Position numbers and translations under genes: made by a program
In this document: positions 5,810-63,190 of the stretch, piece after piece
How positions within the stretch are numbered: the first letter of the stretch is position 1
Layout: every line of letters starts with the position of its first letter
The notes under the pieces: model-generated
What the model saw: the letters and a program-made list of their open reading frames with translations, nothing else
The model's database searches: none
Told to the model about the DNA's origin: nothing
Assembly: GCA_031763025.1 (NCBI GenBank)
Contig: JASSKH010000037.1
Coordinates: 1,364,001 to 1,428,000, forward strand
DNA: 64,000 nt
Source: Macrocystis pyrifera
Taxonomy: Eukaryota; Sar; Phaeophyceae; Laminariales; Laminariaceae
Direction: 5' to 3'

Positions 5810-5966
5810 GCGTACTGGATTTACTGGAGCGCGTGCTTTGCGACCATCATCACGTGGGTGTTTGCTATGGCTGCAGCGATAGACGATGCATGGCTTAGCC
5901 TGAACGAGATGTCTTTTGGAGAGCTGGGGGAAGATTGCTTCTTGGAAAACTCCATATGCACACGTT
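5810..5966 (+). CDS. Copy 1 exon A: membrane span 1 and Cys-pair loop
   Basis: Acceptor CCCGCGTAG precedes the exon and donor T|GTGAGTG ends it, leaving one base of a split codon (T + AC = Tyr). It reads AYWIYWSACFATIITW then a hydrophobic run, then GEDC-x6-C. Copies 2 and 3 have the same borders and the same opening [VA]-[YF]-W-I-Y. The flanking intron sequence, for example CTTCGCTTCGTG before the exon and GAGTGCCCCA after it, is conserved between copies. Confidence 0.65.
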
Positions 5967-7904
5967 GTGAGTGCCCCACATGGGTAACGCTTGATCTCGA
6001 CAATAATTAAAACATCAACAAGTAGAGGCGTCGGCGTTGTCAGGCAAGTGGCGCACAAAAAAAATGACGCGGACCCCGTCAGTTGTTACACATGACGATA
6101 TACGCGCGTTTTCGTTCAGGTATGTCAACGGGTACGTAGGCTATTCGCAGCTACACGCTCTTGTCAGGTTTTGGTTCTGTCTGAACCCGATCGTTCTAGG
6201 GCATTCGCGAGTTTGAGTATCTGTACAACTGCGTTTGGTTTGGACCATGGAATGGATAAAGTGATAAGGTGGCCAGACTAGCTATTTCTCTCGTCTAGAC
6301 AGCCCCCGTCGCGCCACCCCGCGCGACTCAGAAGCACCCAGCGCCACCCCGTCTTATCTGGGGTCACTACGGGGGGGTGGCACCGCAACTAAGAACGCCT
6401 AGCGCATCCCTATCGCACGACGCATAGGCTAAAGCTCGAAGGTGGTGTAACTCTTGCTCGATCACCGTGACAAGTTGCGGATGACCCTATCAATCGTATG
6501 ACTCCGCTCCAGTACCCAACACAATAATTCCCACAAAGATAACTGTAAAGGCCCATAAGTGTCAACCCTACTAATAACCTCGCCGTATATCGTAGATCAG
6601 CCGAGGTCGGATGTTCTACACACAGATGTCACCATCTGATGTATATTCCAATAACTTGTCGCCACTGACCTGCAGCCGCGTTGCATTTTCGGCACAACCG
6701 TACCCCTCAGACGACGCTGCGACAGTCTTCCAATTCCTCGCGACGGCCATTGTCAGCTTCGGGCTCGTGGTGGTGGTCACTGCGGCGTTCACGTCGCCTC
6801 CGAAGACGGGCATGCTCGGGCTAGCTTTGGGGATAATGCTGGCAGTGTTCTCCTTGTTCCAGCTGATAGCCTTCTCCCTCATGGTTGCTGTGATCGACGA
6901 ATGTGAGGGCAGCAGTAGCTTCTTTGGTTCGATTACATGGGTTGGCGCTTGGTTCTTGCGGAAATAGCGTGGACGTTGGCGAGGATGCATAAAACTTCGT
7001 CGTGGAATTATGGCACACCGCGATGGTTGTGATACCCGAACATGGCGACGTTCAGTGCCAAGCAAAGGGAGGTCAAAACGAACTACAGTATCTGGTACTT
7101 GAAGTCGATGCAGGCGCCCCGAACAACCAAAAATGAAAATTATAGTAAAGCAAGCAGTAGGCCTCTCCGTGTTGCAGTTGTTTTCAGAACGATGGGGCTC
7201 CCCGCTGCCGGCGACTCGACGATGTAAAATCGAATTGTAGTCCTTGAGCGTGATGTTCGATGTTCCCTGCACGAGAAACGCGAGCGTGTTCTATCATGGC
7301 ATGACCCCGCAACTGAAAGCATTGGTCAGAAGACTCACGACGCCATACCATATGGGTTAGCGCCGATAATATGTCGAAGTGTATCCGCGGTACCGTGTGT
7401 TGCTCGCATACAACCAATACGAATGGGTGTCATAACCTACAGTCATCGATTTGAGCAACGCGGCCGCTCCTGCCGCGCCCAAAGGTTGCGAACAACAATC
7501 CTTGGAAGGTCATAGGCCGCACATGCTTCGGCACCGCCCGACAAGAGCACGGCAGCAGTCACCCCTTAGATTGCCCATCATGACCCCACCCCCACTCAAA
7601 TTCCGCAGTTTCGCCCTTATCTCCCCCCCCTCGCCGGTTCTGTATCCGCTTCGCTTAAGTCAACGACATTGCAAACAGCGCTGGACTAGGCGACTTGTTC
7701 GAAGCTGGCCCTACCGTCGGCGTGGCAGTAACGGCTTGCCTCTTAGGTCTAGCCGGCACCATCACCATCCTGGCCCTGCGCTCACGCGCAACAAATGCAG
7801 ATGAGGGCCCCCTTAGGAAGTGCATGTCTGGGGGAGATACTGTGGCTGAAGGAGCTTCGGCGGAAACACACGTCGCGGACAGTGTAACCGTTCCCACAAT
7901 ATGA
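5810..7904 (+). CDS. Tetraspan membrane protein, claudin/amastin-like, copy 1 (exons A, B, C)
   Basis: Spliced gene with exons 5810-5966, 6711-6902 and 7660-7904. From exon A on it encodes 197 residues and reads open to a TAA-free end at TGA/TAG-type stop 7902-7904. Hydrophobic spans lie at about residues 5-24 (exon A), 62-82 and 89-112 (exon B) and 137-158 (exon C). Loop 1 carries GEDC-x6-C, followed by YDAATVFQ at the start of span 2. Span 4 opens with AGPTVGVAVTAC and is followed by RSRATNADEGPLRK and an Ala/Gly/Ser/Thr-rich tail. Both introns are phase 1 with GTGAG donors. Introns are short (744 and 757 bp), the most compact of the three copies. Four spans plus a Cys pair in loop 1 fit the claudin/PMP22/amastin superfamily; this placement is inference. 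The true N-terminus is not resolved because exon A begins at an acceptor, so an upstream exon is expected. Confidence 0.72.
6711..6902 (+). CDS. Copy 1 exon B: membrane spans 2 and 3
   Basis: A 192-base exon between acceptor TACCCCTCAG and donor GAAT|GTGAGG, phase 1 at both ends. It has the same length in all three copies. It encodes DAATVFQFLATAIVSF, a short SPPKTG turn, then LGLALGIMLAVFSLFQ. An AUG-started frame from 6611 runs through it past the donor to 6967, but the shared donor in all three copies argues that translation leaves at 6902. Confidence 0.75.
7660..7904 (+). CDS. Copy 1 exon C: membrane span 4 and C-terminal tail
   Basis: The acceptor here is CTTAAG, weaker than the CAG used in copies 2 and 3, but it gives the same phase: the T left by exon B plus TC makes Phe. 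It reads a short loop 2, then FEAGPTVGVAVTACLLGLAG, RSRATNADEGPLRK and a tail ending VTVPTI. A Cys replaces the Trp that copies 2 and 3 have in the A-[WC]-L motif. No N-glycosylation sequon is present in loop 2, unlike copies 2 and 3. Confidence 0.7.
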
Positions 7905-7926
7905 AGAGTTAGGGAAGACAAGCGAC

Positions 7927-8035
7927 TATTACGGGGGACCGTAGTAAAAATGGACCTACGGTACACATAAAAACCCTTATATTTACCAATATTAACTAAC
8001 AATATTTGGTCCTATTTACTATGGTCCCCGTGATA
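7927..8035. mobile_element. TA-flanked MITE, copy 2
   Basis: Same family, placed about 20 bp behind the stop codon of tetraspan gene 1. The right end is slightly decayed (GGTCCCCGTGATAG). It may provide sequence to the gene's 3' end. Confidence 0.88.
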
Positions 8036-8100
8036 GTGTAGGGTTTTCTGGTTTGTTTCCTCAGTACCAGTAGACTACTCGTGCCTTGTGATCACGGGGC

Positions 8101-8358
8101 AGATATTGGCAATGATCTGCAGTATCAAGAGTAAAGCGGAATCAGCAACACGAACTATTAACATTTTCCCACTAATACGTATCGGAAGATATTGGCAATG
8201 ATCTGCAGTATCAAGAGTAAAGCGGAATCAGCAACACGAACTATTAACATTTTCCCACTAATACGTATCGGAAGATATTGGCAATGATCTGCAGTATCAA
8301 GAATAAAGCGGAATCAGCAACACGAACTATTAACATTTTCCCACTAATACGTATCGGA
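8101..8358. repeat. Three near-identical 86-bp tandem units
   Basis: Units begin AGATATTGGCAATGATCTGC at 8101, 8187 and 8273 and end ATACGTATCGGA. Only one or two bases differ between units, so this is a young expansion. Confidence 0.95.
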
Positions 8359-8394
8359 AGCTCAACAAGAAACACCTTCAACATACCACACCAG

Positions 8395-8760
8395 TAACAG
8401 TACCCGCTAGTACCAGTACAGTATATTCGGAGGTCAATACTGGAGGTGCTGGGCTATACTGAGTATATTTCGGGGGTTAATAATGCGAGCACTCGGCTAT
8501 ACTTGGTATTTTTCGGAGCATGACACTTCGAGTACTGGGCAAATCTTGCAGGCAGCGGTAGTATAATTCGGGGTATGCGAGTGCTGGCCTATACCATTAC
8601 GGGGGAACACAGTAAATAGGACCTTCGTTGGACACAAAAACCTCTATATTTCCCTGTTTTTACTAACAATATTTCGTCCTATTTACTGTGGACCCCCGTA
8701 ATATGTACTTTCGAGCTTTGATACTGCGAGTAGTGGGCTTTACTAAGGACCTCCTCTTAT
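8395..8760. repeat. GAGTACTGGGC minisatellite, part 1
   Basis: Degenerate units of about 55-60 bp with TACTGCGAGTACTGGGC, TATACT and a TTTTCGAGGTTTG-like spacer. Interrupted by MITE copy 3. Confidence 0.8.
8595..8704. mobile_element. TA-flanked MITE, copy 3
   Basis: Same family, inserted inside the GAGTACTGGGC minisatellite. Left end ATTACGGGGGAACACAGTAA, right end CTGTGGACCCCCGTAATA. Confidence 0.88.
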
Positions 8761-16390: not shown

Positions 16391-17792
16391 TCGGATTTGT
16401 GTTGTGCTCTACAATTTTCGTAGCCGATGGCGTTGTTGCCCGGACGCGCGGCCATTTTGTTGTCAAAGTCGTTTATTGGTGGGGTACAGAGCTCCTGTTA
16501 TGGTATTCACGGTATCCCCGTTTCCCCTCTGTTGTTGAGGTGGCGTGTTTCTAATGAAACGCGCCAAGCAAATAATTTATATGACCCGCCCTGGTCTCAG
16601 TCAGTACCCTCTGAGAGTCAGGAAAGTGGGAATCATCAATAAAATACATCAAACTCTAAAACCCGAGGGAAAGTACCGTAATTTAGCAATAGCACGACTC
16701 AGATATGTGTTGCTCCCTAAAAAGTATATCAAGCCGGCCAAAATCAACTCCAATCTGCTATTTCCGAGGAAACAATGATTATCTCGCGAAATTTTATACG
16801 TTTTTCCTTGGAAAAACAAAACTAGCTTACACCGGGGGGCAGGAGAGAGGAATCGTTTGCCATCCTTTAATTTGAAATCGCACGAAAGGGTCTCCGCGCT
16901 GCCAAAACTACAAGCAAAATGACGTCCTAGATTTAGTTTTTAGTATGACATCTCCTGCAACTTTTTTTTCATTATAAATCGGCAAAGTGCTAAGCCTGGC
17001 AAATCCCGACAGCTGTCCAAATTATGTTTTTTTTATATGGTTGGAAAACGTGCTATTGAATAGAAAATCCCCAAGATCGATAATTAACAAGTGACTGTTT
17101 TTAATGTTACAAGTATGGTGGCAAGTGGTCCCTACCGGCGGCTAGCGACACGTCCAGGGTCGGCTTGGAGGGCTCAGATGCCCTGCGGAATCTGGTCGGC
17201 GTGACATCAGGCTACCAAGCGGTTTAAGAAGGAGAGATACGGTACAGCATATATCCTATATACCAGGCAAAGCCTGTATCTTTACCTGGGGGTACGGCTT
17301 GTTTCCACCCACCTTCGGTTACGGTTTTTTTTTTTTGGAGAACCTAGAGAACATTGTCCGGCGTATCGGTGCTAATGTTATTCGAAACAAAATAACACTC
17401 CAGGAAATACTATCCGCCTTGAAATCAGCGGGTCAGCGCTACCTTCGGATTTCTGACCCAAACGCCCCGCCCAAAGAATAGACAGTGCACCTTGCTTGAT
17501 GCGGGGGAATCTTAGACAAATATGAATGGCATGTAACGATGTTACTGTCAGAGACAAAATGCCAAACGGCAAATGGCGAAAACTTTTATTATTGCATACA
17601 CGGCGCCAGCTCGACTACTGCTGTCTGTACTGAGATGCTGGCAATCGCCCTCTACGAAGTAAGGTGCAAAGAGCTCAACATTGGATGTGCGGCAGTGGCA
17701 ATGTGCCAGCGCATGGTTCACCGCCTAATTTTTGGTTACAGCCCTATTGCGCCCATAAAACCAGATGGACTCGTCAAATCTGATATTCCCTC

Positions 17793-17903
17793 TATTACGG
17801 AGGTCCATAGTTAATAGGACCTATGGTATACATAAAAACCTATATATTTACATATTTTTTACTAACAATATTTGGTCCTGTTAACTATGGACCCCCGTAT
17901 TAG
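17793..17903. mobile_element. TA-flanked MITE, copy 4
   Basis: Same family, inserted in block U of unit 2. The matching block U at about 50,270 lacks it, so it arrived after the segmental duplication or was lost from the other copy. Confidence 0.9.
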
Positions 17904-17950
17904 TACCTGTTACGAGTGCGATTCCTGGGCCTTTCAATGTGTGTTTAGGT

Positions 17951-18174
17951 TAGTGTTGTATATCGGATATCGATATCGGAATCGAGTTTAATACGACACC
18001 GATAAACAAAACAACTATGTATTCGATACGATTTCCAAATTTGATACATCGAAGCTTTCGTTCAGTGTCAGCATGAGAGGCACGGGGATGCCAGGGGATG
18101 GAGGGCAAAACACGTTCGATACGATACATCGAAAAGTTCGAAACTGCGATGTATCGATACGATATCCAACACTA
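17951..18174. mobile_element. 224-bp hAT-like non-autonomous element
   Basis: Ends TAGTGTTGTATATCGGATAT and GATATCCAACACTA form a short imperfect inverted repeat of the TAG-N-G style seen in hAT elements. The inside is rich in CGATACGAT. The equivalent spot in block U copy 2 lacks it. Flanking 8-mers (GTTTAGGT and ATTTGGCG) are only similar, so a target duplication is uncertain. Confidence 0.55.
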
Positions 18175-18736
18175 ATTTGGCGGAAAGTTGGCCCCATCGA
18201 ATCTTCTGGCAGTCGCTCTATCGGCATGAAATACTTCTACACGAGTACAAGCGAGGCACCTCGAACTCTTCACAAACAAGAACTATCGACCACAACCAGC
18301 AGTGTCAACGTTCGTGTAGGAGCCGCTCCGTCCGTGATCGGTGCTGGCGCTACCCATTACCCAACCCCAGGCAACCAAACGGCGAAGACTAGTCATCTAC
18401 CCCCCTTCCTCCGGACTGTGGACACATACATGGCTCCCTCCCAGGTTGGTTCGTATTTTTGAAGTCATCACCATACTTATGGAGAGAAGAACGTTTTTTT
18501 TTTATGGCCGCACGGAATGTTGGTTGCTTGCACCTGCCCATCAGGCATGCTCGACGGCTGATTGCGAACGAGGGCCACCTGGCACGACCCGCTTTCTCGT
18601 CACGGCTCCAGTGCCTCGAGGCCTGCCCCTGACGAGAGCTTAGAGTTGAGGTACCGAAAGCACGTTCTCTGTTTGCCCATCGTGTTCTTCGGCTATGCTG
18701 GTGATGGTTGTGTACTCTCTGTTGGTTGTATCCTGG

Positions 18737-18846: not shown

Positions 18847-18849
18847 GCT

Positions 18850-27566: not shown

Positions 27567-27729
27567 GTGTACTGGATCTACTGGAGTGCATGCCTTGCGA
27601 CCGTGATCACGTGGATATTTGCTGTAGCTGCAGCGGCAGACAAGGCGTGGTATGGTGACGACACGACTTACATGTTCACAGCTGGACTGGGGGACATTTG
27701 CCCCTTCTGGATTCCCAAATGCAGACTCT
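27567..27729 (+). CDS. Copy 2 exon A: membrane span 1 and Cys-pair loop
   Basis: Acceptor CTCGCATAG and donor CTCT|GTAAGT, the best donor of the three copies. It reads VYWIYWSACLATVITW, then GDICPFWIPKC, with a split codon T + AC = Tyr. It is two codons longer than copy 1, all in the stretch between span 1 and the Cys pair. Confidence 0.68.
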
Positions 27730-30700: not shown

Positions 30701-33700
30701 TATCTCACGAATCATGACCTGACCCGACCCGTGATATATCGAACACCTCCTGACCCGACACGATCAGACCCGCGAGATTTTCAAAACCTCTTGACCCAAC
30801 CCGACCCGACCCGTGAGGTTTCAAAACCTCTTGACCCGTCCCGTCCCGACCCGACCCGACCCGTGAGATTTCAAAACATCTTGACCCATCCCGACCCGAC
30901 CCGTGAGGTTGCAAAGTTCTTGACCCGACCCGACCCGACCCGCGAAAAGCTCGAGTTGTCTTGACCCGACTCGACCCGACCCGCGATATTTTGAATCCCT
31001 CCTGATCCGACCCGTGGGTCGGGTCATGACCCGCGAAGAGCCCTGGATAATATAAAATCGTGCCGGAAAAATATGAATCGGACGTGAGTGATACCTGGTA
31101 TAGTATAAGTCGTTTAAAAATAACGAGTGAGTCCTATGCGGGAATGGTGTTACGTGTCCTGAAATCTGAATATCACCGAGAGGTCAAGACCACCAGCGGA
31201 AACCACCGAGGCGAGCGACGAAATGCGTAGTTCCCGGAGCACCGCCGCTAGCGGATTTTTGTTTGGGTTCGCGGGACAGGAGTATCTAGCTTCTGGGGTG
31301 TCTTTTATATTGGGTGGGCTGAGGCAGCCCCCAAAACAGGCGCGTGGAGCACAGACGGCGATGCAGCTTTCGACATTTATGAGAAAATCGTTCGTTATTT
31401 GGTTGATGCTGGAGTGGCTTCGGAGATACAACGGGGAGACAATTGTTTTTTTTTCGCGACGGCTTGCTTTTTTGTAGGCGCCGCCTATGGGCTACGCTGT
31501 GTTAGTTGCCTCCCAGAGTGCTCCCTGCGGTTTCTTCGGTCTCCCTGTCTCTCGAGAATAGTGGTTTTTTGCCTTGGAAGCAGTCATCGACACGACCCAT
31601 ATTCGCATGGCCTGCTTTGGTCACACTGAACATGCCACGTCCAGCTAGGTGAACTCCCCAGATTGGATTATATTTTCGCCGGGAAAATCCCTGGGGGCTT
31701 CTTTTTTCTTCGTCAGAAAACAATTTGCCGTCGTCCAAAATAGTGTTGCCTGCATCGTGAGTCACCTTCGACCAATCAGTAATCTGATACAAGCCATTTT
31801 TTTTATAATATATTTTCCATTTTAGTTTTCCCGTTGGCCTGTCTTACCAGAAGGTAAGGAAAGGGAAAAAAAAAATCAGGGCTTTCATTGGCCGCTGGGA
31901 AAATCAGGAACCCACTTTTTTTCTATTCAGAAAAAACAATGATCTGAAAGGAATGCGCGAAAACAAAAAAAAAAAACATCAAAATCTGAGCGAAACTCGG
32001 TGAGAAAACAACAAGGGTCTCATATTCAGCGTGTCTTCCTAGTCAGGGACCACTTATGTACACAGCCGCGGAAGAAAATCACGACAGGACAGCAGTATGC
32101 AGCCCCCACACGGAGCCACCACATATGTGCAGCAGCACAGATCTCCGGTAAACAGCCAGTAGGCTAACCATACCAACAGCCGAGACATTCGCGCGAAAAC
32201 GATACAGTGGCTGACGCGTTCTACGATAGAGATAGCACATTTTCGCGGAAACGTTTTCTGAATGGCGGGGTTCCCTGACCCAAAATCGCCGGAATGTCAA
32301 TCTTGTTTCGAAAAAAGACGCCATTGTATACTTGGACCATGGGATACTCATCGGGATGCAATCTGATTTTTACTGGCGTCAATTTAGTGAGGAGCCTCAG
32401 AAAAATTACGGTGAACCCCTATCGTGGAACGCCTCGGCTCGGTGGCGAAGACATTTTCGCATGACACCCTTGAGACGAGCTTGGGTATTCGTTTTAGGCA
32501 ACTTTGGACGCGCGACCGCCTCCAGGGGAGGCCCAACGACCTCTCGGGGTCGAATTATCGTCTTGTCTGCCTGCTGGTCTGACGTTCGTGCGTTTCTAAA
32601 TCGACGATATGTGTGCCCATCCCTATATAGAGCGTACGAGCTCTTCCATTAGTTTCGCCGCTGTTTTGGTGGACAAATTGAACACCTCGGCGAAAACAGT
32701 AAGGAAAGCGAATTTTCGTTTCTTTTTGGATAAGACAGTCCCTTAGCTACTGTAGTGCTGCATTCATATCCCAGTGTGGTACCAATGCAAAATACCATCT
32801 GGGTTGGTGTTTCTCGTGCATGAAACCCTTCAATTTTGTGCTTTTGTGCGATCCTCCCTCGCCAATGACACATTCCTCAGAGCCCCGTTACCTAGCCCCA
32901 TTCCCGACAGCTGGCGGATTTTCTCTCGCACACCTTGCGTTTTGAACAATCCTTTAGATGCTATTGGTGTATGAATATATCTCAAACTCTGCCGCTAGAT
33001 AGACCTCCACGGCGCGTGTGTCGATTTCTCTGGTGTGTACAGCCAGCTCCTGTCGCGCCAACCCCCCCCGCCCCCTCTCGGCTCAGAAGAACACAGCACC
33101 CTCCCGCCTTAGCGGGGGGTGACATCGCATCTACGAGCGCAAACGACATTTCTATCGCACGAGCTTTGTTTCATTGTTTGGCCTGCCGTCACTGACCGTC
33201 AGCCATGTTTGTTTTTGTTCCGTCCTCCGTCACAACCGTACCCCTCAGACACCGCCGCAACGGCCTTCCAGTACATGGCGACGGCGACCGTCAGCTTGGC
33301 GCTCGTGGTGGTGGCCATCTCGGCATTCGCGCAGCCTCCCATGACGGGCCTTCTCGGGCTAGCTGTGGGGATTGCACTGGCATGCTTCTCCCTGTTCGAG
33401 TTGCTCGCCTTCTGCCTCCTTCTCAGCTTTGTCACCGCACGTGAGAGCAGCTTCTTTGCGTCATTTCTGCATTTTGACGCTTGGTTTTTGGCAAGGTAGC
33501 GTGGACGTTAGCGGGGCTGTCCCATCACTTCGTTTCGGAGTGTGGGCACGCTGCAACGATGGCACCCGAACACGATGGCTTCCATCCCTACAGCTCTGGG
33601 AGGTAAATGGGGGCCACGCATGGGACATGAGGCGATGCAGGCAATCTACACTAACGATAGTTTTCTGCCGGTGTGGTTACACGAGCAGTAGGCGCCTCCG

Positions 33701-34789
33701 TGTTCCCGTTGCTTTCAAGAAGATGGGGCTGCCCTCCGAGAGCGACTCCGCTAGGCACTACCAGCATGATATTTAATCAAATGGCACTGAGGCATTCTGC
33801 CTCATATTTGTAGTAGGCAGTGTGCGTGCCAGGGAAGAAGAAAACCTCCCACATCCGTTCTGAGAAAAAAATCTCGCACTGTAGCACGTTTATCACGGCT
33901 CATGCGGGAAGGATTTCGGTGGGACAAGCGCAACGAGTTACGCATTGCAACAAATGGTCCGCTTCTGTAGGAGCCGAGTTGGTCAGAATTGGGCTCCCCT
34001 ATATATCAGACTGGTGTAAACCGTGATGCACCCACGAACAGACATATAGGCAGACATACAAACTAAAGACATTGTGCAACCCTGCAAGTACCCCGCAACG
34101 TATACCTGGTATATAGTAGAGCGATAACGAGACAAGACTGCCTCATACTTGCAGTAGGTCGTGTGCGTTCGAATTCATAATATATTGGTGCTCGTAGAAG
34201 AAAGCGAGAAGCGGAAAGCAAAACGAAACTCCCACAACCGTTCTGGAAAATAGAACGCGCATCACGAACTAGGAGCTTGAACAAACGCACTGCAGCGCAA
34301 CCACCGTGTTGAGTATGCCCTGAGTACAGCTGTGGATATCGCTCAGTCATGACTGGGGAATTGGTTTGGGTTGCGCGGCCGCTCTCTCTATGCCCAAGGT
34401 TGTACACAAATCCAAGGTAGTCTACCCATGCTTCGACACAACCCGAGAAGGACACTACAACAGTCGCTCCCTGGGTGTCCATCATCACGCCCACCCCCAC
34501 TCATTTGCCGCTTTTTCGCCCTCGCCTCCCCCTCTGGCCCCTTATGTCTCCCTTCGCTTCAGCCGACTCCTTCAACCACGAGAATGAAACTGGCCCTACC
34601 TTCAACGTGGCAGTGATGGCCTGGCTCTTCGGTCTAGTCGGCGCCACCACCATCCTTTACTTCCGCGTGCGGGCAACAAGTGAAAAAGAGGGCCCCTTGA
34701 GGAAGTTCATGACTGGGGGAGGTGGCGTGGCTGGAGGAGCTTCGGAGAAAAATCTCGTCGAGGACGATGCGGCCGTTCCCACAGCATGA
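27567..34789 (+). CDS. Tetraspan membrane protein, claudin/amastin-like, copy 2 (exons A, B, C)
   Basis: Spliced gene with exons 27567-27729, 33249-33440 and 34563-34789, giving 193 residues from exon A with no interruption. It follows the copy 1 pattern: span 1 after VYWIYWSACLAT, loop 1 with GDIC-x6-C, YTAATAFQ before span 2, span 3 ending in LLLSF, loop 2 with the sequon N-E-T, span 4 opening TGPTFNVAVMAW, then RVRATSEKEGPLRK and an acidic tail ending VPTA. Introns are phase 1 and measure 5519 and 1122 bp. The first intron holds GACCCG and CCGTC-type repeats. The 3' flank matches copy 3 for several hundred bases. This is the best candidate for a working member. Where it acts is inferred only: a membrane, probably the cell surface. 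Confidence 0.75.
27940..28290 (-). mobile_element. GACCCG-type repeat element G2
   Basis: It begins with GGGGCTTTTCGCGGGTCAGG, the reverse complement of the G1 right end, followed by GACCCG arrays with AT-rich spacers. It lies in intron A-B of gene 2. Confidence 0.6.
28425..28860. repeat. Four tandem units of about 109 bp
   Basis: GACGGTAGACGGTAGTTCG recurs at about 28,462, 28,572, 28,681 and 28,790. Each unit also has CGGAAAATCCAAAATATGCC and GGACACGACGG. The outer units are less alike. Confidence 0.9.
28861..29460. other. No gene seen
   Basis: Unique-looking sequence between two related repeat arrays in intron A-B of gene 2, ending in an A-run at 29,431-29,450. Both arrays and this stretch may form one element. 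Confidence 0.3.
29462..29770. repeat. Short-period GGCGGTATCCAGTGTTGAC repeats and GACGGTAGACGG units
   Basis: About four units of 30-32 bp (CTGGCGGTATCCAGTGTTGA) lead into units with GCCGGTAGACGGAAATAGTG and GACGGTAGACGGTATTTCG. The latter links this array to the 109-bp array at 28.4 kb. Confidence 0.75.
29771..30430. other. No gene seen
   Basis: Short frames, with a T-rich patch at 30,195-30,290. It lies inside intron A-B of gene 2. Confidence 0.3.
30480..31046 (+). mobile_element. GACCCG-type repeat element G3
   Basis: The left flank has TCGGTACGAGAGAGGCCTTC, also found (reversed) at about 61,570. Then come GACCCG arrays with spacers ending in CCTCTTGACCC. The right end is GACCCGCGAAGAGCCCTGG. 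It is the fullest copy of the family in the window. Confidence 0.65.
31050..32210. other. No gene seen; minus-strand peptide similar to one at 5.0 kb
   Basis: Minus frame 31,502-31,792 starts MYQITDWSKVTHDAGNTILD and continues DGKLFSDEEK, like GSSNSILEDDKLFADHPK at about 5 kb. The source family is not known. The rest has only short frames and A or T runs. Confidence 0.35.
32215..32440 (+). repeat. Dispersed 250-bp repeat R, copy 2
   Basis: Counterpart of 26,335-26,595 in the same orientation, inside intron A-B of gene 2, about 5.9 kb away. Confidence 0.8.
33249..33440 (+). CDS. Copy 2 exon B: membrane spans 2 and 3
   Basis: A 192-base exon, acceptor ACCCCTCAG, donor GCAC|GTGAGA, phase 1 at both ends. 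It encodes TAATAFQYMATATVSLAL, QPPMTG, then LGLAVGIALACFSLFELLA. The intron just upstream (from about 32,990) resembles copy 1 from about 6,270, so the duplicated unit includes this intron end. Confidence 0.78.
34563..34789 (+). CDS. Copy 2 exon C: membrane span 4 and C-terminal tail
   Basis: The acceptor CGCTTCAG gives split codon C + CC = Pro. It then reads DSFNHENETGPTFNVAVMAW, a hydrophobic run, RVRATSEKEGPLRKFM and a Gly/Ala-rich acidic tail. The stop at 34787-34789 is followed by a 3' flank that matches gene 3 and, after a break, gene 1 downstream of 10.59 kb. Confidence 0.78.
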
Positions 34790-42605: not shown

Positions 42606-42636
<31 letters not shown>

Positions 42637-48643: not shown

Positions 48644-48649
48644 TACTGT

Positions 48650-53598: not shown

Positions 53599-53712
53599 GT
53601 CGAAAACCCGTTCACCGATGGTTTCTTAGTGTTGATGTCGCAACGTGCGTACTGCCTGCAGTATGCTCAGTGTCGAGCACCATCAACGAAATCACCGGGC
53701 AATGACCCGAAG
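53599..53712 (+). CDS. Possible upstream exon of tetraspan copy 3
   Basis: A 114-base open stretch between ACTCTCAG and AAG|GTGAAA. It is phase 0 at the end, which would join cleanly to exon A. It reads VENPFTDGFLVLMSQRAYCL, QYAQC, then NDPK. A homologous stretch lies upstream of copy 1 at 4530-4630, sharing GTGTTGATG, CCCAGTGTCGA and CAATGACCCGAAGGTG. The copy 1 version is not open throughout. It could be a real N-terminal exon or just conserved intron or promoter sequence. Confidence 0.3.
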
Positions 53713-53819
53713 GTGAAATAGTTCGTTCCTTGCTGAAACCAGGTCGCGGTGTACTTACTTCGACTATATTTACACCCGGCACCCTTCGCTTCGTGTCGTA
53801 CTTCGAAACCCTCGCGTAG

Positions 53820-53986
53820 GTGTTCTGGATCTACTGCGGCTACTGGGGTACATGCCTTGCCACCGTCATCACGTGGGCGTTTGCTGTGGCTGCAGCGACA
53901 GATGATGGGTTGGCTTGGGGGAAAATGGAACTGGACTCTGGGGACACGTTGCAGCAGCGATATCATTGATTACAAATGCAAACACC
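53820..53986 (+). pseudogene. Copy 3 exon A with one-base shift
   Basis: Acceptor CTCGCGTAG and donor CACC|GTGAGTG are both kept. The exon differs from copy 1 by a 9-base in-frame addition (CGGCTACTGG region) and one extra base after the DD codons. Staying in the first frame meets TGA at 53966-53968. The loop-1 half in the second frame still has a Cys pair and an N-W-T sequon, so both halves look selected until recently. Confidence 0.55.
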
Positions 53987-56900
53987 GTGAGTGTGCCCCA
54001 TGGGGAAAGCTTGATGTTGACATTGGGTAAAACACCAAGAAGTAGGTATCGACGTCGTCAGGCCAATAGCTCACGCAGAACGCAGAGTCCCTTGAGTGGC
54101 GAAACGCGAGTGTTCGCTTGGTTTGGACTGCTTTTATATTTAGTTTGGTCGGCTTTTTTTAAAAACAATAATCCCCCGTTTTGTTTTCGTCTTCTTTTAG
54201 TTTCGTTTTTGTCCCGATTCTTGACGTTTTTTGCTCAGTTGCGTCATTTTTTTTTTTTTTTTTTGTTGTATGTTTTGTGAGCTGTTGAAGTTGAGCGAGT
54301 AGTGCAGTAAGCATTGACTTTGCAAGTTACTACCTACTGCTGCCGAGTCTACTGAGTTTGACGCACAAAGCATTCTTCTCGTCACTTTCTTTGTATTTTT
54401 TTCGTCGTTTTCTCGTGTTTTTAGTTCCATTCGTCGTATTGTTCGTGGTGTACTCGATATCTCGCTTAGTTTTGACTGTTTCTTATCATGATTCGAGTTT
54501 CGAAAAAAAAGTCCTTGTTATTTTTTCAATTTCTGTTTTTCGAAAGAAAAATCTGCCGGATTTTCTCCACTTTTAATCGTTTTTTTTTTTCTCTTTTTTT
54601 TCGATTACCCTTGAATACTGCGGAGTGTTGTTTTATCTTCGATTACTATCTGCTTCTGCTGAGTCTGCTGAGTCTGCTGAGTCTGACGCAGAACAATGCT
54701 TTATTTATTTCTTCATTTACTTTCTCTCGTGTATATATTTGATTTCCTTGTACTTTGTCGTTTGCATTCGTTCATGTTTCCTTTCGTCGTTTTTAATCGC
54801 GGGTTTCTCGATTGTCTCCATTAGTTTCGGCTGTTTTTCGAGTCTGCTTTGATTTTTTTTTTTTTTCCCCACCCCTCCCCCGCCCCTTCCCCCGTTTTTC
54901 TTTACCTTACTTCGTATTTTCCGCCCCCCCCGTCGTTTTCGGTTGTTTTGCTTAGTTTTTTTTCTTTTATTTATAGATGTAGAAAGTAAAGAAAGCATTG
55001 CTCTTACTTTCTTTTATCTTTACTTTTATTGAATGCATTTGCTTTCCATGTACTGTCTTTTGTCGTTTGCTTTTCTTTTTATTTTCTTTCGCCTTCCTGT
55101 TTGTTGTTTCTCGATTATCTCCTTCGAATTTGACTGTTTTTCGACTCTGATCCAAGTTTTTTTTTTTTCAACTCCGCCACCCGGACGTTACTTACTTTAG
55201 TATTTTTTCTCCCATTTTTTTTTTTTAAGATCTCGCTCAGTGTGGACTGTTTTTTCCCCCGATTTTTCAGTTGCCTAAAAAGCGCGTAGCTCTTGGCATC
55301 TGCAAGTCCTAAGCTCCATCAAACCATGGATCCCTGCCCGCTCCCGTTTTTTGTCTAGTTTCTCCTTGAGCGAGAGTAGCGAGCGGAAGCCGTCTGCAGA
55401 GAAAAACGCCTTGCTTATTTTTTACAGTGTGACAGAAAATGTTTGCTCCCCTCAAAAAGCGCAGTTGATTGTGCAGCTGGCTGCACTTTATGTGTTCGTG
55501 TGATTGCTGCTCTATTTTACCGGGATATCGTCAACTGGCGTAGTAATCCACGGTTGTATCGTTTTATGGCGTTTTCAATTTCGTCAGACATTTCAGTTGA
55601 TTGCAGCGTTGCATTATCGTCAACTGGCGTAGTAATTCACGGTTGTACCGTTTTATGGCGTTTTCAATTTCGTCAGACATTTCAGTTGATTGCAGCGTTG
55701 CGTTGTCGTCAACAGGCGTAGTAATCCACGGTTGTACCGTTTTATGGCGTTTTCAATTTCGTCAGACATTTCAGTTGATTGCAGCGCATAAACTAGTGCA
55801 TTATTAGCCTGTCAGACACGATTCGGAGTTCTCGAGGCGGAAAACCACAGTGAACTGCGGAATTAGCTGTTTCGCTTTCATATCTCACCTATGGTGCCGA
55901 CGCGAAATGCCTCCTACTTTTGGTATCATTTTGCACCGGTACTGCACAAGCAGCACACAACTATTACGGGGGACCGTAGTAAATAAGATCAAACATTGTT
56001 AGTAAAAATAAGGAAAAATGTAGGTTTTTGTGTGTACCTTAGGTCCCATTTACTGTGGTCCCCCGTAATAGACGAAAAGTCGAGTCCCTAGCCATAAAAA
56101 CGGTATACTCTCTGCTCTTGCCGGTGGAATGGGGGAAACCCGCCTCTGGAAATCCCATACTTACATTGGCCGCGCCCATTAACCAAGGCACCCCTGTAGT
56201 ACTATGCCCATGTAGTCGCCACAAACCCCCAAGGTGCAGCGACGCTCAATTTAACTACTCCGATTGGTTCTCGCCGTTTTATGGCGCAGGGTTCGCCGTT
56301 TCTTGGCGTACAGGACACCGACAGATACGGCCATCAACGCCAATCGCCTGTAAACGTTTAGGAGAACTTAACCAGACAAGAGGATAGGGGTTTGTTGTCA
56401 GGTGACGGCACAGGGATGCCTTGGCCAATGCGCGCTGCCGATATGAGGTGGTCCCTGAGGTGGGTTTGCCTCCTATGCCGACAAGTGGCGCAAAACACCC
56501 CCGGTGTTATACCGTTTACTATTACGGGGGGCCATAGTTAATAGGACCAAATATTGTTGGTAAAAATAGGGAAATATATAGGGTTTTGTGTGTACCGTAG
56601 GTCCTATTTACCATGGTCTCCCGTAATAGCTTACTCCCATACATATATCGCGTATGATACCAACGTACAGTCTAGTGCCATAAATGGGGAATGGTTTCGA
56701 CAACCGCTCCTTGCAAGCAATGCATAACAAGAAGAGAGAAAAGAGCGGCAAATACATTATTCAGGCCACGGTGGACTCTCAGGAATTTTTGTTGCAGGCG
56801 CGAGTAGGCGTTTCGCCAAAACATACAAACGACGTGGAGATAGAAGAAAGGATTTGCAAACAAGATCATTTTTTCTCGGGTTCAGAAAAAGGCTACAACC

Positions 56901-59782
56901 TTGTCTCAATCGAGGTTTTTTTCAGTCCTGTGTTGCCCTTAATTGAACCTGATAAGTAGTGCCTCTCACGGGTTGTTGCTGCTAGCCGTCAACTTCGAGT
57001 TCAAGAAAACATCTCGTGGGTCGTTTCTCGCTGCCACAAAAGGAGAGCGCCTCAAATTTCACGGGCTACGGTTGCTTGTGGGGAGCTGTATCTGTCCGCA
57101 AGCGGAGCGCAAACTTTCAGTTGGGCGTTGTTTTTTGTCTCGAACTGAGTCTTTCATTTACCAATTTCGACCACACTAGAATATCTTAAAGTCGAGGTAT
57201 AGACCTCTGCTGAGAAAGTGCGGGCGGCTGGTTTGGAGAGAATCACACGCCGCTGTAAATGAAACACGAAGCTGGTACACCGGCTTCGTGCTAAGACACA
57301 AATCAGCCGAGGGTTCAAAAGTAGCGTGTAAGAAACAATGGCGTAACTATCTGCACCGTAAATATATCTACAGACTGGAATCACACCCAAAAACTGAGCG
57401 GGGGGGTACTCATTTGTTGCGTGCCTTAGCCAATTGACCATTGATCACACATCCATTTCGAGGCGGAGCACCGTCCCTACTCCTAGTAGAGACACTCCCA
57501 ACAGTTGGGCCCCCTTTGTGTCGTTTTCATATAATACATTAAAAAAAAAATGCTAATCTCATCGCCTTCCTGTTTCGCCGCCTGTGGCCACCATCTATCT
57601 CCTAGGATGGCGATCGTTTTCTCGCTATCTAGTGTACGAAATTCATTCGTCTAATTTCCTTACCTTCTCTTCTAACAGATCCCGTTCCTCCTTTCACATT
57701 TCACATTCTCCCACCATGTGAGTTATAGTTTATATTGCTTCGCCACGAGGGCGCACCTGTGCATCTGCTTCCTCCTCCTCCGGGCTACTGGTATACCTCT
57801 TTCTTCTTTCTGGCAGACCCAGGCCCCCTACGCGAATTCGCAGTTTCAGCGTTTTCTCGAAGTCCATTGGGCCATGCAAGTACGTTGTCTTTCCTATCCC
57901 TTGTATTGCCCCTCCGTATTCCGCAAGTCCCTCTCCGCTTTCACCTTATTTCTTAGCGCTAGCCTTCCCTTCTTGCTATCCTTTCGTTTAGTTCTGTCTT
58001 TTACCCCTCCAAACTCATCGATGGACAGCGTATCTTCTTTTTGTAATGATGCTGCCACTGCGGTGCTTCCATGCCGGTACGGTGCTCCCGCGGTGCTGCT
58101 GCGATGCTGTCGTGGCTATCGCACGAGTGGGGCGCTTGGTTTCATCTTTTATCCTTCCATGCTTTCTCGACCACGCTATCCCACCTTATTCCAGCTCGCC
58201 CTTTCGTTACTTTCTCCCTACAACTTTACCAGCTATGGCTGGCAATCTCTTCTTTAGCATTGCCTTTTCTTTATATTGTCATTCCAACTTTATCGCGTCT
58301 CTTTTTGTCTTGTTCGGGTGCATTCCTAGTTCTTCTCTTGATACTGTATTACTCGTCGTACGTGAGCATCCTTGTGCTTTTTTAGCTGCTGTCGTCTGTA
58401 CTGCTTCCAGCTGTTTTGCATAACTTCGCGTTCCCTTCTCATCATTATCTTGCATATTCTAGCTTTGGTACGATCACACTCATCAGGATGCATCTCTTAA
58501 TCCTAGTGTCAAGGTGCGAGTCTGTTAGGGTCGCTTCCACCTTCCCTACATGTGCCTTGCCCTTTCCTATTAATACTATGTTCGCTATGTGTGCATCCCA
58601 AGAGCAGTATTATGAGGTCTCTACGCCAAGGTGCGGATGCTCGTCCACAATCGCTAATTCGTCTTCTCCCCACTTCCGCTTGAAAGTTGTCAGGTTCACA
58701 TTGTCTTCGTTCCATACAACTACTGCGCACTTCTTTTACGTTCGCCGCCACCTTCCATTTCCTGATGTATTCTAGCGCATTGTCTATTTATTTCTACAAT
58801 CCTTCGGGAGTTTCTGATATCCGCACGAAGCCATCCGCAAACATGAATCCTGACACCGTATTTTTCCCCGCAGTGACTCCCTGCTTTGCTGCTTCGACTG
58901 CTACTATCAAGTCGTTAATATATATCTTGAATAGGTTGGGTGACAACGTACATCCCTGTGCAACTCCTTGTAGAACATCAACATACTTCGATATTTCCCC
59001 GTCCATCGTCATAGCACTTCTCGCACACTCCGTCATATTTTTCATCATTCTCCACATACTTCCTCTGATCCCTATTTTTTCCCACAACTTTTTCCACGAC
59101 CCATGATTCCATACTGTGTCGCAGGCCTTTTTTTACATCTAAAAATAAACAGTGCCTTGTTAGCCCCGCGTCTTTCCTACCTTGGACTATCTTGCCCAAT
59201 GTGTACACGCGGTCTACGTAAGCTACGGGTGTGGCGTAAACCCTACTTGCCCTTAGCGTATTTGTTCTTCCTTCTCCATCATCGTTCTCTTTCGACCGTT
59301 GGAAATATTACAGAATGTTTGCCTACGGTGTTTGGTGACGATATCCCTCTATAGGTGACCGGGTGAGGCTTGTCTCCTTTCTGAAATAAGTTGATCACTA
59401 TTCCTGCTCTCCATTTTCGTCCCAAATCCCTCCCTCAGACGACGCCGCTACAGCCTTCCAGTTTATGGCCACAATTACAGTCAGCTTCGCGCTCGTCGTG
59501 GTGGCCATCGCGGCGTTTACGTCGCCTCCCACGACAGGCAAGCTCGGACTGGCTTTGGGGATAATGCTGGCAGTGTTCTCCTTGTTCCAGATGATCGCGT
59601 TCTCGCTTATGGCTGCCTTCGTCGCCGAAAGTGAGAATGGCATATTTCCTTCGATTCTATCTTTTGACGCTTGTTTTTTGCCGAAATATTATGGACGTTG
59701 GCGGTGGGGGTGTCTAATTTCTGCGCCGTGGGGTGTTGGCACCCCGCGATGGCGATGGCGATGGCGATGGCGATGGTGGTGG

Positions 59783-59817
<35 letters not shown>

Positions 59818-62800
59818 CTCACATGAACTCATCGCCACAATTAATGCAATGCATTCTGTGGTCGCAGGACAGGCTCCAACAACTCTGTCTGGAGTGGAAG
59901 AAGAATACCTCGGTAGAAACGAAAAACAAGCGAAGAATAATACATATGATACTGATGTACATCTACACCTCAGACAGAAACAAAAAAGTGAGGTCCGCGC
60001 ACGTGCGTATCAGGTACATGCGGTACGCTGTACAAGTCGCCATAGAAACCAAGAAGACCGCATACTACCCAGGAAGGAATCGAAAGGATGAAAAAAAACA
60101 ACTCGACGTCGAAAAATCGAAAGCGCAGTCGAAAAAAATCAAAAATCGAAAATGGAAGAAAAGTAATCAGTTCAAGCAAGAAAGCAAGAAAGGAAGAAAG
60201 GAAACACACAAGAGAGTGCGCAGATTTTCGCGGATTGTGGGTTCGCAAGCTACGCGAGGGGTGTAGAACAGAGATAAGAACCAAAAAAACACAAACATAC
60301 TTACTCCGCTATTAAGAACACCAGAGAAACAAAAAGGAAACCAATACTCGTATGATAGACTAAGAACGAAAAGAAAGACGACGAAGCAAACCAAAAAAGG
60401 AAAAGCAGACTGTACCAAAAAGCAAAAAGGAAGATACAGAAAGAGACACAAAGTGGGGCAAACGGGAAAAAAAGGAAAGAGGAGAAAAAAAAAAAAAAAA
60501 AAAAAGGAAGAAAAGAGACAAAAAAGGGCTCTGGGGGGGACAGATATTACGAAAGAGAGGCGCTGGTACCCGAACACGGCGACCTCGAGCACCACTACTG
60601 CGAGCAAAAAACGTACAGTACGTCAAAGCCGTTCATGCTATAAGACGATGTGGATGCTCCGCACTGTTTATACCAAAAAGTTAAATAGATATGAATAGCA
60701 GTACAGTATGCAAGCAGTAGGCGCCTCCATACTGCCGCTGTTTTCCGGGCCCTTTACGGGTCATGACCTGACCCGCGGGTCGGGATAGGATGCTGTCAAA
60801 TTTCATGGGTCGGGTCGGATCGGGTCGGGTCGGTTGAGGAGCAGGGTTCCGATCTAGATGTTGCACTCTGTTGCGCCAGCACATCATTTTCGGCGAAATC
60901 GCGCATAGTGCAACACGCGCCGCAACGTGTACTTTGCACAAACGGTGCAACGCGTTTCGCCTGGTTGGCGAAAAAATACTGCGGGGTTTTTTGCACCGCA
61001 GGCGAACATAACTTGTGGGCCTTTTTGTTTCGACCGTTACGAAACGACGTTCAGGCCGTTTTCGCTGGCATTTCAGTTTCTGATCAAAATAGTCGTACCA
61101 GCTGAATCGTACCAAATACAAGTGCACCAGCCATTTCTGGACAGAATGCAATTCGATAATGATATGGGCATTGTTTTGGTTTTCTAACACGGTTAAACGA
61201 TTCGGCATAGTGCACACTTGACCTGTTTTTCAGGCGTATTTTCATGCATATATCGCAAATATTTGCCCCCGGCAGCCACCGTCTTCCGGCTTATCGGGAA
61301 CCCTGGTCAGGATGTGTGCAATTTCTGGCGGGTCAAGTCAGGTCGGGTCAGCAGGTACACAAAGCATCACGGGTCGGGTCAGGTTGGGTCAGATTTAAAA
61401 ATCTGAAGATCTCACGAGTCGAGTCAGGCCACGGCCCGTGAAATACGGGTCATGTCGCGGGTCAGGCCGCCTTGATCCGCGAATTGGTCTCTGCTGGTCT
61501 GCGGGTAAGACCCGTAGATCCTACCCGTGGATTCGATGTTCCAAAAGTCACCGCTTCCTGCTCGAAGGCCTCTCTCGTGCCGATATGCCTTAGGCCGAAT
61601 AGTCAAACGCTATTAATACCATATACCGGTATGTTGTAGCATTTTCCACATCCACGAATACCCACTTGACATAAAGATTACCCTGGGCCGGGTAATCGAT
61701 CGATATTTTACCCCTCTAGCCCGGTAGATAACACCTTCACATTTAGCATCGTCGAGGACAGGGGGTTCGAATCTCACTTCGAACATTTCTTGTATAGAAA
61801 CGCTTGCGCGTGTGGTCCCTAAAAACACATCTCCCTGGTTCCCCAGGTATTGAAACGAAGCGGGTAGGTCAGCGTACGGCCGTATACGGTACCGACGCCC
61901 CAATGATCCCGCCGTTCAGAGGGGGGGAGAGTGTTATAAGGATTACCCTGGGCCGGGGAAATCGATCGATCCTTTACCCCTTAGCTCAGTAAGTATCGCC
62001 GGCACACACTGTCGCGAAGGTGCATTTACCTCAACAGTGCTCTCTGCGGGGTACAAAATTAAAGATTAAACTGTTTTCAATGTGTCGACCCGCGGGCTTG
62101 ATCCGCTGATCAAGCCCATCGGTGGGGAGAAAAAGCCTTAGGGGTCACGGTGACTCGACCCGCGACGTGTCCCATACATCACGGGTCGTACGGAGTCTGG
62201 CGGATCGGGTAAAGTCAGGAGGCGCTCATAATCTTATGGGTGGGGTCGGAAAGTTTTTCAATATAATGGGTCGAGTCGGGTCGGATTGGGTCTTGAGGTT
62301 TTCCAATACTCACGGATGGGGTCGAGTCAGATCGGGAAGTTTTCATAATATCACGGGTTGGTTCGGGTCGGGTCGGGTCGGGTCGGGCCAGATGTCGACA
62401 GTTGACGTTTTTCGAGTCTCGGGCTGGGTCACCCGACCCGACCCGACCCGACTCAGCCCGTGAGAGGTGACCCAATCCGTGACACGTGGAGAACACTGAA
62501 TGATTTCAGCACGATGAGGCCGCCCGCTGTGAGCGTCTCAACGAGGTACAACCGTGCGGTCATCCTTGAGCGCGATATTAGAGAGTCCCCGCTCCAGAAA
62601 CGCAGGCAGACGCGCTGTACCACGGCATGACCCCCCGCAACTGTACTGCTAAGCATTCTCACAACGATCACATTGACATATAATATAGTGTAGGTTTTGG
62701 CGCTTAAGTCGCAGCGTATCCGCAATATATATATATATATGGGTGTGCGATGATGCTTACTGGTGTAACCTATTATCGTTGGTTTGAGCAACGCGGTCGC

Positions 62801-63190
62801 TCCGGCTGCGCCCACAAGGTGGAGAACAAACGTTCTTGGTAGGCATCGATCGCCGAGAAGGACACAGCAGCAGTCGTTCCCTGGGTTGACCTTCATGACC
62901 CCACCCCCACACATTTGCCGATTTTCTGCCCTACCCTCCCTCTCGTGACGCCCCTTCTTCCTCAATGCGCCGCAGTCAACCATGCCTACGGGAACAACAC
63001 CGTCGAAGCTGGCCCCACTCTCGGCGTGGCAGTGGTGGCTTGGCTCCTAGGTCTTGCCGGCACCATCACCATCCTGGTACTGCGCTCACGTGCTACAAAC
63101 GACCATGAGGGTCCCTTCAGGAAGTTCATGTCTGGAGAAGGCAGCATGGCCGGAGGAGCTTCGGCGGGACACAATGTCTCGACGGTGTAA
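53820..63190 (+). CDS. Tetraspan membrane protein, claudin/amastin-like, copy 3 (exon A frame-shifted)
   Basis: Exons 53820-53986, 59439-59630 and 62976-63190 match copies 1 and 2 in borders and phase. Introns are 5452 and 3345 bp and hold a T-rich array, a LINE, GACCCG elements and a SINE. Exons B and C are open and well conserved: HDAATAFQ, SPPTTGKLGLALGIML, EAGPTLGVAVVAW, RSRATNDHEGPFRK. Loop 2 has the sequon N-N-T. Exon A is 167 bases, which is one base out of phase. Its first half reads VFWIYCGYWGTCLAT in one frame and its second half reads GTRC-x8-C-K in the next. The shift lies near 53903-53908, where GGGT stands in for the GCA of copy 1. Either this copy is a recent pseudogene or the base is a sequence error. 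Confidence 0.62.
54130..55260. repeat. T-rich degenerate tandem array
   Basis: Very T-rich on this strand. About three drifting units of roughly 300 bp share CTTTCTTTG or TACTTTGTCGTTT, a TCTCGATT-T-TC stretch, GACTGTTTTTCGA-TCTG and a T-run. It starts where copies 1 and 3 stop matching (GCTTGGTTTGGAC) in intron A-B of gene 3. Confidence 0.55.
55525..55795. repeat. Three tandem units of about 90 bp
   Basis: TCGTCAACTGGCGTAGTAAT at 55,527, 55,617 and 55,706. Each unit ends TTTCAGTTGATTGCAGC and differs by only a few bases. Confidence 0.95.
55962..56071. mobile_element. TA-flanked MITE, copy 8
   Basis: Same family, opposite orientation of the core relative to copies 6 and 7. It lies within intron A-B of gene 3. 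Confidence 0.9.
56520..56629. mobile_element. TA-flanked MITE, copy 9
   Basis: Same family, about 450 bp from copy 8 in the same intron and in the same orientation. Confidence 0.9.
56630..57395. other. No assigned gene; 91-residue ORF at 56,684-56,959
   Basis: The + frame MGNGFDNRSLQAMHNKKREK continues SGKYIIQATVDSQEFLLQAR and ends LIEPDK. It has no recognised family and lies inside intron A-B of gene 3, so it is probably chance or an element fragment. Confidence 0.2.
57400..59430 (-). mobile_element. 5'-truncated LINE with reverse-transcriptase core
   Basis: The minus strand encodes an RT core at 58,794-59,087: RSAMTMDGEISKYVDVLQG, VAQGCTLSPNLFKIYINDLI and GFMFADGFVRISETPEGL. The catalytic FADD box is FADG, so the second Asp is lost. 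The 5' side up to 59,430 still shows pieces of the RT N-terminal region. The C-terminal side includes the Cys-His region and a terminal C-tract (read as G at 57,400-57,406). Frame changes are frequent. It is the same family as 14,236-15,240. It lies in intron A-B of gene 3 and stops within about ten bases of exon B. Confidence 0.82.
59439..59630 (+). CDS. Copy 3 exon B: membrane spans 2 and 3
   Basis: A 192-base exon, acceptor TCCCTCAG, donor GAAA|GTGAGA, phase 1. It encodes DAATAFQFMATITVSFAL, SPPTTGK, then LGLALGIMLAVFSLFQ. It begins within about ten bases of the 5'-truncated end of a minus-strand LINE, so that insertion only just spared the acceptor. Confidence 0.75.
59735..59818. repeat. 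GATGGC and TGT microsatellites
   Basis: About five GATGGC hexamers followed by about twelve TGT trinucleotides, just behind exon B of gene 3. Confidence 0.95.
60070..60530. repeat. A-rich degenerate stretch
   Basis: Purine-rich, with AAAATCGAAA, GCAAGAAAGGAAGAAAGGAA and an A-run at 60,484-60,505. It resembles the reverse complement of the T-rich array at 54.1-55.3 kb in style. It lies in intron B-C of gene 3. Confidence 0.5.
60756..62505 (-). mobile_element. Composite GACCCG-type insertion G4 in intron B-C of gene 3
   Basis: Intron sequence common to genes 1, 2 and 3 runs AGTAGGCGCCTCC...TTTTC up to 60,755 and resumes at AGCACGATGAGGCC from 62,506. The 1.75 kb between is absent from genes 1 and 2. 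It starts GGGCCCTTTACGGGTCATGA, the family end in reverse, and contains CTCGAAGGCCTCTCTCGTGC (the family flank, reversed) near 61,565. A nested SINE (61,671-62,012) and a second GACCCG array (62,085-62,480) follow. TTTC at both ends may be the target duplication. Confidence 0.6.
61671..62012 (+). mobile_element. tRNA-headed SINE, family 2, copy b
   Basis: Same layout as copy a: GATTACCCTGGGCCGGGTAA at 61,677 and again at 61,941, GGGTTCGAATCTC between them, and CATCTCCCTGGTTCCCCAGG in the body. It is nested within the GACCCG insertion in intron B-C of gene 3. Confidence 0.8.
62976..63190 (+). CDS. Copy 3 exon C: membrane span 4 and C-terminal tail
   Basis: The acceptor CGCCGCAG gives split codon A + TC = Ile. 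It reads NHAYGNNTVEAGPTLGVAVV, AWLLGLAGTITIL, RSRATNDHEGPFRKFM and a short tail ending VSTV. The tail is shorter than in the other two copies. Confidence 0.75.

What the first reader, a model, noticed from the sequence alone, without database searches (positions are those of the whole stretch)
5810..63190. Three tandem copies of a claudin/amastin-like tetraspan gene
Three loci share a three-exon structure with identical phase-1 junctions. Codons split across both introns rejoin to sensible residues in every copy. The product has four hydrophobic spans, C-x6-8-C in loop 1, AAT-x-FQ entering span 2 and GPT-x-x-V-A-V opening span 4. The loop-1 Cys pair and span-4 pattern are those of the claudin/PMP22/amastin group, which is well known in animals and kinetoplastids. 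A tandem family in what seems to be an alga would be of interest. The loops and tails vary most, as expected of surface proteins.
Basis: partly seen in the sequence, partly recalled or inferred. Interest (0 to 1): 0.82.

Follow-up and report, generated by a model that had tools for sequence, protein, structure and literature searches.

The report
Claudin-fold gene array in kelp
Three related genes in a kelp chromosome are part of a larger head-to-tail array encoding brown-algal membrane proteins predicted to have the fold of animal claudins, a protein group best known for sealing animal tissues, although the start of each gene is still missing and one copy looks broken.

Summary
Copies at 5810-7904, 27567-34789 and 53820-63190 share three coding exons. 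They are the downstream end of at least 11 same-strand copies over about 348 kb.

Two corrections. Copy 3 has a broken frame in that exon.

Verdict: a brown-algal family of claudin-fold tetraspans, not a claudin or amastin proper. Function is inferred; expression was not tested.

The parts
5810..5966 (+). copy 1 exon A: span 1 and loop 1 with C-x6-C; internal exon, not the first
6711..6902 (+). copy 1 exon B (192 nt): spans 2 and 3
7660..7904 (+). copy 1 exon C: loop 2, span 4, tail, stop
27567..27729 (+). copy 2 exon A
33249..33440 (+). copy 2 exon B (192 nt), after a 5519-nt intron
34563..34789 (+). copy 2 exon C, stop
53820..53986 (+). copy 3 exon A, 167 nt, reading frame broken inside the exon (TGA at 53967-53969 in the acceptor's frame)
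59439..59630 (+). copy 3 exon B (192 nt), open
62976..63190 (+). copy 3 exon C, ends ...NVSTV stop
4582..4674 (+). non-coding block shared with copy 3 (53662-53756); aligned with four further copies it shows indels and no shared ORF, so probably upstream intron
53662..53756 (+). same non-coding block upstream of copy 3 exon A

Best explanation
Each copy encodes a claudin-fold tetraspan of about 195 residues plus a missing N-terminal exon: cytosolic N-tail, span 1, an outer loop with a Cys pair, spans 2-3, short loop 2, span 4 and a cytosolic tail. It belongs to a brown-algal family that has spread by tandem duplication on one kelp contig to at least 11 copies, with loop 1 diverging fastest. 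Most likely mechanism (inferred): the four-helix body sits in the plasma membrane and assembles side by side into oligomers or strands, as claudins and fungal Sur7 proteins do, while the variable outer loops face the wall or neighbouring cells. In the relatives whose N-tail carries PPxY motifs, these would recruit WW-domain proteins (such as NEDD4-type ubiquitin ligases) that set how long the protein stays at the surface. Shown here: gene anatomy, family, selection, predicted fold. Inferred: topology in the cell, location, assembly, PPxY recruitment.
Against: No sequence profile passes its cut-off in any member scanned singly with cut-offs printed; MARVEL matches more members (7 of 14) than PMP22_Claudin (3 of 14) at E up to 1. 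Alignments for the models were shallow (14 and 13 rows) and mean pLDDT 70-74. The models are of relatives, not of the spliced window proteins. No start exon was found for any copy. Copy 3 and k1274 look damaged; copies 1 and 2 alone do not show constraint in exons B+C (pN/pS 1.04). PPxY was not found in the window copies, nor in P0006, whose annotated start lies 4 residues before exon A, nor in the N-tail of P0033 (it is in its C-tail). No RNA, localisation or interaction data.
Confidence: 0.6

Rival explanations
1. The window copies are largely decaying duplicates: exons A-C survive but promoter and start exon were left behind at duplication, so that most are silent or make truncated products.
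For: No convincing start exon upstream of 10 exon A copies (2.5 kb each searched, 1.49 kb for k1328), although in three places only about 1.1-2.1 kb separates exon A from the last matched exon C residue of the gene before; copy 3 exon A frame break; k1274 without recognisable exon A; copy 2's long branch of 1.05 and pN/pS of 0.60-0.88 against the 8 other intact copies.
Against: pN/pS below 1 in 36 of 36 pairs of 9 copies; AG before exon A in 10 of 10; copy 3 exons B and C are well constrained (0.28-0.60 in 10 pairs), so its lesion is recent or an assembly error.
Confidence: 0.25
2. A MARVEL-type or other unrelated four-helix membrane protein that resembles claudins only by convergence of a simple bundle.
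For: MARVEL is matched by 7 of 14 members at E up to 1, best 7.1e-4, 20.1 bits against 32.8.
Confidence: 0.12
3. One upstream first exon serves several downstream A-B-C cassettes by alternative splicing, which would explain why no start exon was found next to the copies.
For: Same strand, same junctions and same reading frame at the exon A acceptor in the intact copies; no local start exon found.
Against: Neighbouring copies lie up to about 130 kb apart and 8 of 11 show their own stop at the usual place; relatives are annotated as single genes with their own N-tail. No PPxY exon was seen in the array stretches read.
Confidence: 0.06

Closest known systems
PMP22/EMP/MP20/claudin family (PF00822), Claudin_3 (PF06653) and TARP/GSG1L/LHFPL (claudin fold)
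   Same: Predicted fold over residues 29-193 of P0002; four spans; loop-1 Cys pair; Trp after span 1; Leu-x-x-x-Cys at the place of the claudin LW-x-x-C (motif positions recalled)
   Different: LG in place of LW; Cys spacing 6-8; PF00822 best 18 bits against cut-off 26.7; PPxY N-tail in three relatives; brown algae
Amastins (PF07344) of kinetoplastids
   Same: Tandem gene family of claudin-like surface tetraspans with a variable outer loop; sub-threshold profile match over the last two thirds of the profile
   Different: Amastin signature absent in all sequences tested; 18.6 bits against 27.2
Sur7/PalI family (PF06687) of fungi
   Same: Claudin-like tetraspan of walled cells; model for side-by-side strand formation
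   Different: 1 of 14 members matches, 14.8 bits against 29.6; no evidence here for an eisosome-type location
MARVEL proteins (PF01284)
   Same: Four spans; weak profile matches in 7 of 14 members
   Different: Best 20.1 bits against 32.8 and not collinear; not among the listed fold matches

Membership tests
claudin-fold superfamily (fold level) | Four-helix bundle of claudin topology | tested here: met
   Predicted only, two models of relatives; all 50 rows listed for each are claudin-fold by title
claudin-fold superfamily (fold level) | Conserved loop-1 Cys pair | tested here: met
   9 of 9 copies with intact exon A; copy 3 only in a shifted frame; missing in the gene model P0004. Bond itself not measured
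PMP22_Claudin (PF00822) | Profile score above curated cut-off | tested here: not met
   Best 18 bits against 26.7; 3 of 14 members at E up to 1; window copies 1 and 2 no match
Claudin_3 (PF06653) | Profile score above curated cut-off | tested here: not met
   Only P0033, 19.6 bits against 28.7
claudins proper | W-GLW-C-C motif in loop 1 (named in PMC11275452, passage seen; spacing limits recalled) | tested here: not met
   0 of 39 relatives and 0 of 9 array copies; a relaxed pattern is found in 9 of the 22 sequences, of which about half carry loop 1
claudins proper | C-terminal PDZ-binding motif | tested here: inconclusive
   VGTV ends in 10 of 19 relatives; -TV in 6 of the 8 array copies with a stop at the usual place; not the class I pattern as recalled
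Amastin (PF07344) | Signature C-[IVLYF]-[TS]-[LF]-[WF]-G-X-[KRQ]-X-[DENT]-C (PMC4671664, passage seen) | tested here: not met
   0 of 39 relatives and 0 of 9 array copies
Amastin (PF07344) | Profile score above curated cut-off | tested here: not met
   P0010 18.6 and P0004 16.7 bits against 27.2; 2 of 14 members at E up to 1
SUR7/PalI (PF06687) | Profile score above curated cut-off | tested here: not met
   P0010 14.8 bits against 29.6; 1 of 14 members
MARVEL (PF01284) | Profile score above curated cut-off | tested here: not met
   Best 20.1 bits (P0003) against 32.8; 7 of 14 members at E up to 1
MARVEL (PF01284) | MARVEL fold | tested here: inconclusive
   No MARVEL entry among the 50 rows shown; absence from the list does not exclude it

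The most novel reading that the evidence does not exclude
Brown algae, a lineage that became multicellular independently of animals, carry and expand by tandem duplication their own claudin-fold surface family with fast-changing outer loops and, in some members, PPxY tails, which forms strands or nanodomains at cell-wall contacts or plasmodesmata: a claudin-like contact system evolved outside animals and fungi.
Probability: 0.15. Interest if true: 0.8.

Novelty: new variant of a known kind. Interest (0 to 1): 0.5.

Why it matters
Claudin-fold proteins are best studied in animals, with amastins and Sur7 as outlying branches. A brown-algal branch with its own motif version, PPxY tails in some members and a tandem array in a kelp widens the known range of this fold and offers a testable set of surface proteins in an independently multicellular lineage. 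I saw no paper naming it in the listings of the searches run: brown alga + claudin (10 of 194 listed; mostly on gut and health topics), amastin + Ectocarpus (0), claudin superfamily + stramenopile (0), brown algae + tetraspan + genome (10 of 12 listed), claudin + Ectocarpus (2), PMP22 + claudin + protists (1). These cover open-licence PubMed Central papers only.

Tried and rejected
Start exon: nucleotide comparison of upstream regions; tblastn with the N-tails of P0002, P0009 and P0011 (one search used P0002 only); ATG-to-phase-0-donor candidates of 8 or more residues within 2.5 kb (1.49 kb for k1328) upstream of 10 copies (the three close neighbours k1278, k1283 and k1288 were not compared with each other; the only two hits were one k1288-c3 pair); aligned upstream blocks of six copies; a + strand PPxY scan of the stretches held then, with an in-frame ATG before the motif (17 segments, none resembling the relatives' tails). 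Nothing convincing. A shorter or more distant exon is not excluded. The block 4582-4674 / 53662-53756 looked like a shared first exon but carries indels and no shared frame. The candidate PPEY at 5065 lies between blocks that are nearly contiguous in copy 3 and has no ATG.

Viral relatives: two scans of viral contigs found none; Foldseek against viral structures gave none at E 0.001 or better, best 0.011. NCBIfam: a bacterial effector family matches 8 of 14 members, best E 7.6e-4, judged chance of membrane helices. The profile search of solved-structure sequences put Nad5 (0.021) and a mechanosensitive channel (0.032) before MP20 (0.042), so it decides nothing. Pfam on 80 ORFs of the window, mostly the longest, of 241 with 85 aa or more outside the low-complexity stretch: none at E 0.001. 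Rfam and tRNA scans of the window: none.
Full report
The window and its source. The window lies at C127:1364001-1428000 of a genome of 537,376,219 bases in 223 contigs. The published Macrocystis pyrifera assembly has 537 Mb and 223 contigs (PMC10498591, passages seen). The identity is inferred from these two numbers; no sequence was compared by name. Of the database relatives, 5 of 8, 11 of 18 and 10 of 32 hits carry a label that names an organism, and all of these are brown algae (Undaria, read from the label Undpi1; Ectocarpus; Hapterophycus; Laminaria digitata; Scytosiphon). The two profile searches scored only the roughly 8000 candidates sharing most words, so distant relatives elsewhere are not excluded.

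The three copies. Repeat search and self-comparison show three similar regions. Exons are 5810-5966, 6711-6902, 7660-7904 (copy 1); 27567-27729, 33249-33440, 34563-34789 (copy 2); 53820-53986, 59439-59630, 62976-63190 (copy 3). All introns between them are GT-AG and the junctions are phase 1 in copies 1 and 2. Introns are 744 and 757 nt, 5519 and 1122 nt, 5452 and 3345 nt. Copies 1 and 2 are open from exon A to the stop. Copy 3 is not: its exon A (167 nt) does not fit the frame of its exons B and C, and the frame fixed by the acceptor ends at TGA 53967-53969. Its Cys pair lies in another frame. Whether this is a real lesion or an assembly error cannot be told here.

Exon A is not the first exon. 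In all three window copies the acceptor is an in-frame TAG directly before exon A; across the array AG precedes exon A in 10 of 10 copies, TAG in 7 and CAG in 3. In the 9 intact translations no Met precedes span 1. Relatives P0002, P0009 and P0011 extend 32, 31 and 42 residues further, with two, two and three PPxY motifs. Against this, P0006 is annotated to start 4 residues before exon A, and the divergent P0033 has its PPxY in the C-tail. No matching exon was found in the stretches read.

The array. A DNA search of the whole genome with copy 1 gave 20 matches, 19 on C127 and one weak one (E 1.3e-5) on C207. Reading 1064-1264 kb, 1274-1294 kb, 1326.7-1330.9 kb and the window showed 11 copies, all on the + strand, within 1079094-1427190, 348 kb. 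The stretches 1304-1314 and 1428-1438 kb held none. Other parts of 1264-1364 kb were not read, so 11 is a lower bound. Exon B has AG before and GT after at 192 nt in 11 of 11. [LV]GxxC-x6-C holds in 9 of 9 intact exon A copies.

Selection and history. Nei-Gojobori counts give pN/pS below 1 in 36 of 36 pairs of the 9 copies with intact exon A (0.37-0.88, median 0.61; first 28 codons of A, B, 50 codons of C) and in 53 of 55 pairs of all 11 for B+C (0.28-1.02). Pairs are not independent. Within the window alone, copies 1 and 2 are not distinguishable from neutral for B+C (1.04, bootstrap 0.76-1.54), while 1-3 (0.42) and 2-3 (0.58) are constrained. A tree of 18 proteins splits the array copies, Undaria and L. 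digitata from the Ectocarpus, Hapterophycus, Scytosiphon and P0009 rows with support 100/99 (root drawn at the midpoint), and L. digitata P0010 joins copy k1101 (84/94), so some duplications probably predate the split of these kelps. Regional identities are in the observation check.

What the protein is. Pfam gives nothing of note for copies 1 and 2. Among 14 relatives at E up to 1, MARVEL matches 7, PMP22_Claudin 3, Amastin 2, SUR7 1. Scored singly, the best are MARVEL 20.1 bits (cut-off 32.8), Amastin 18.6 (27.2), PMP22_Claudin 18 (26.7), SUR7 14.8 (29.6); P0033 gives Claudin_3 19.6 (28.7) and PMP22_Claudin 17.4. All are below cut-off. The MARVEL matches place the second half of that profile on spans 1-2 where span 1 is present, while PMP22_Claudin matches nearly end to end (P0002 to positions 9-155 of 161, P0033 to 22-154). 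AlphaFold: P0002 mean pLDDT 69.6, pTM 0.57; P0009 73.7 and 0.62; four long helices each. Foldseek's two matches at E 0.001 or better, of 289 at E up to 10, are GluA2 complexes with TARP gamma-2. VIA-align's 50 listed rows for each model are all entries with a claudin-fold chain by title (TARPs, GSG1L, GARLH4/LHFPL4, the Cav1.1 complex, MP20, a designed claudin fold); for rows whose title names only a complex, that the chain is the claudin-fold subunit is my reading. Z at rank 50 (14.7, 14.3) exceeds the up-to-13 that the tool reports at that rank for helical models without clear match.

How it would work. Claudins and fungal Sur7 proteins assemble side by side; Sur7 strands line plasma-membrane furrows and balance curvature (PMC10702824, abstract and passages seen). 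Amastins were related to claudins by fold modelling (PMC4671664, passages seen). By analogy I favour side-by-side assembly in the plasma membrane with the variable loop facing out. PPxY binding to WW domains is recalled knowledge. All of this step is inference.

Standing. The fold assignment is fairly strong as a prediction; membership in claudins or amastins is not met at motif or profile level. The most useful reading is a brown-algal family within the claudin-fold superfamily. No Pfam family covers it above cut-off in the members scanned, and no paper naming it appeared in the listings seen.

Noticed in passing
3914-4025, 7927-8039, 8595-8706, 17792-17904, 18732-18847, 48534-48645, 49384-49495, 55956-56074, 56514-56629: A repeat of about 112 nt in both orientations, 9 places, resembling a short non-autonomous transposon.
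   Followed up: no
692-859, 28014-28220, 30709-31007, 62438-62484: Minisatellite of about 40 nt built on GACCC units, at four places in the window.
   Followed up: no
17117-18679 and 49532-50805: Related blocks (66-75% identity in pieces) upstream of copies 2 and 3.
   Followed up: partly
8098-8360; 55526-55792; 28451-28887: Short tandem arrays of 86, 89 and 109 nt units, the first at 98-99% identity between units.
   Followed up: no
23097-23257 and 63718-63878: A 161-nt pair at 96% identity 40.6 kb apart.
   Followed up: no
42293-42838: ORF of 181 aa with a weak DUF4131 match, E 0.0022, 18.1 bits against cut-off 31.6.
   Followed up: no
C127:1274001-1287000 (L009, L010), copies k1274, k1278, k1283: Exon C of these three copies reads on past the usual stop within the 260 nt printed.
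   Followed up: no
protein P0033 (eukprot g11335.t1, 286 aa): Divergent relative (34% identity) with PPSY in its C-tail rather than its N-tail, wider-spaced loop-1 cysteines, and sub-threshold Claudin_3 and PMP22_Claudin matches.
   Followed up: partly
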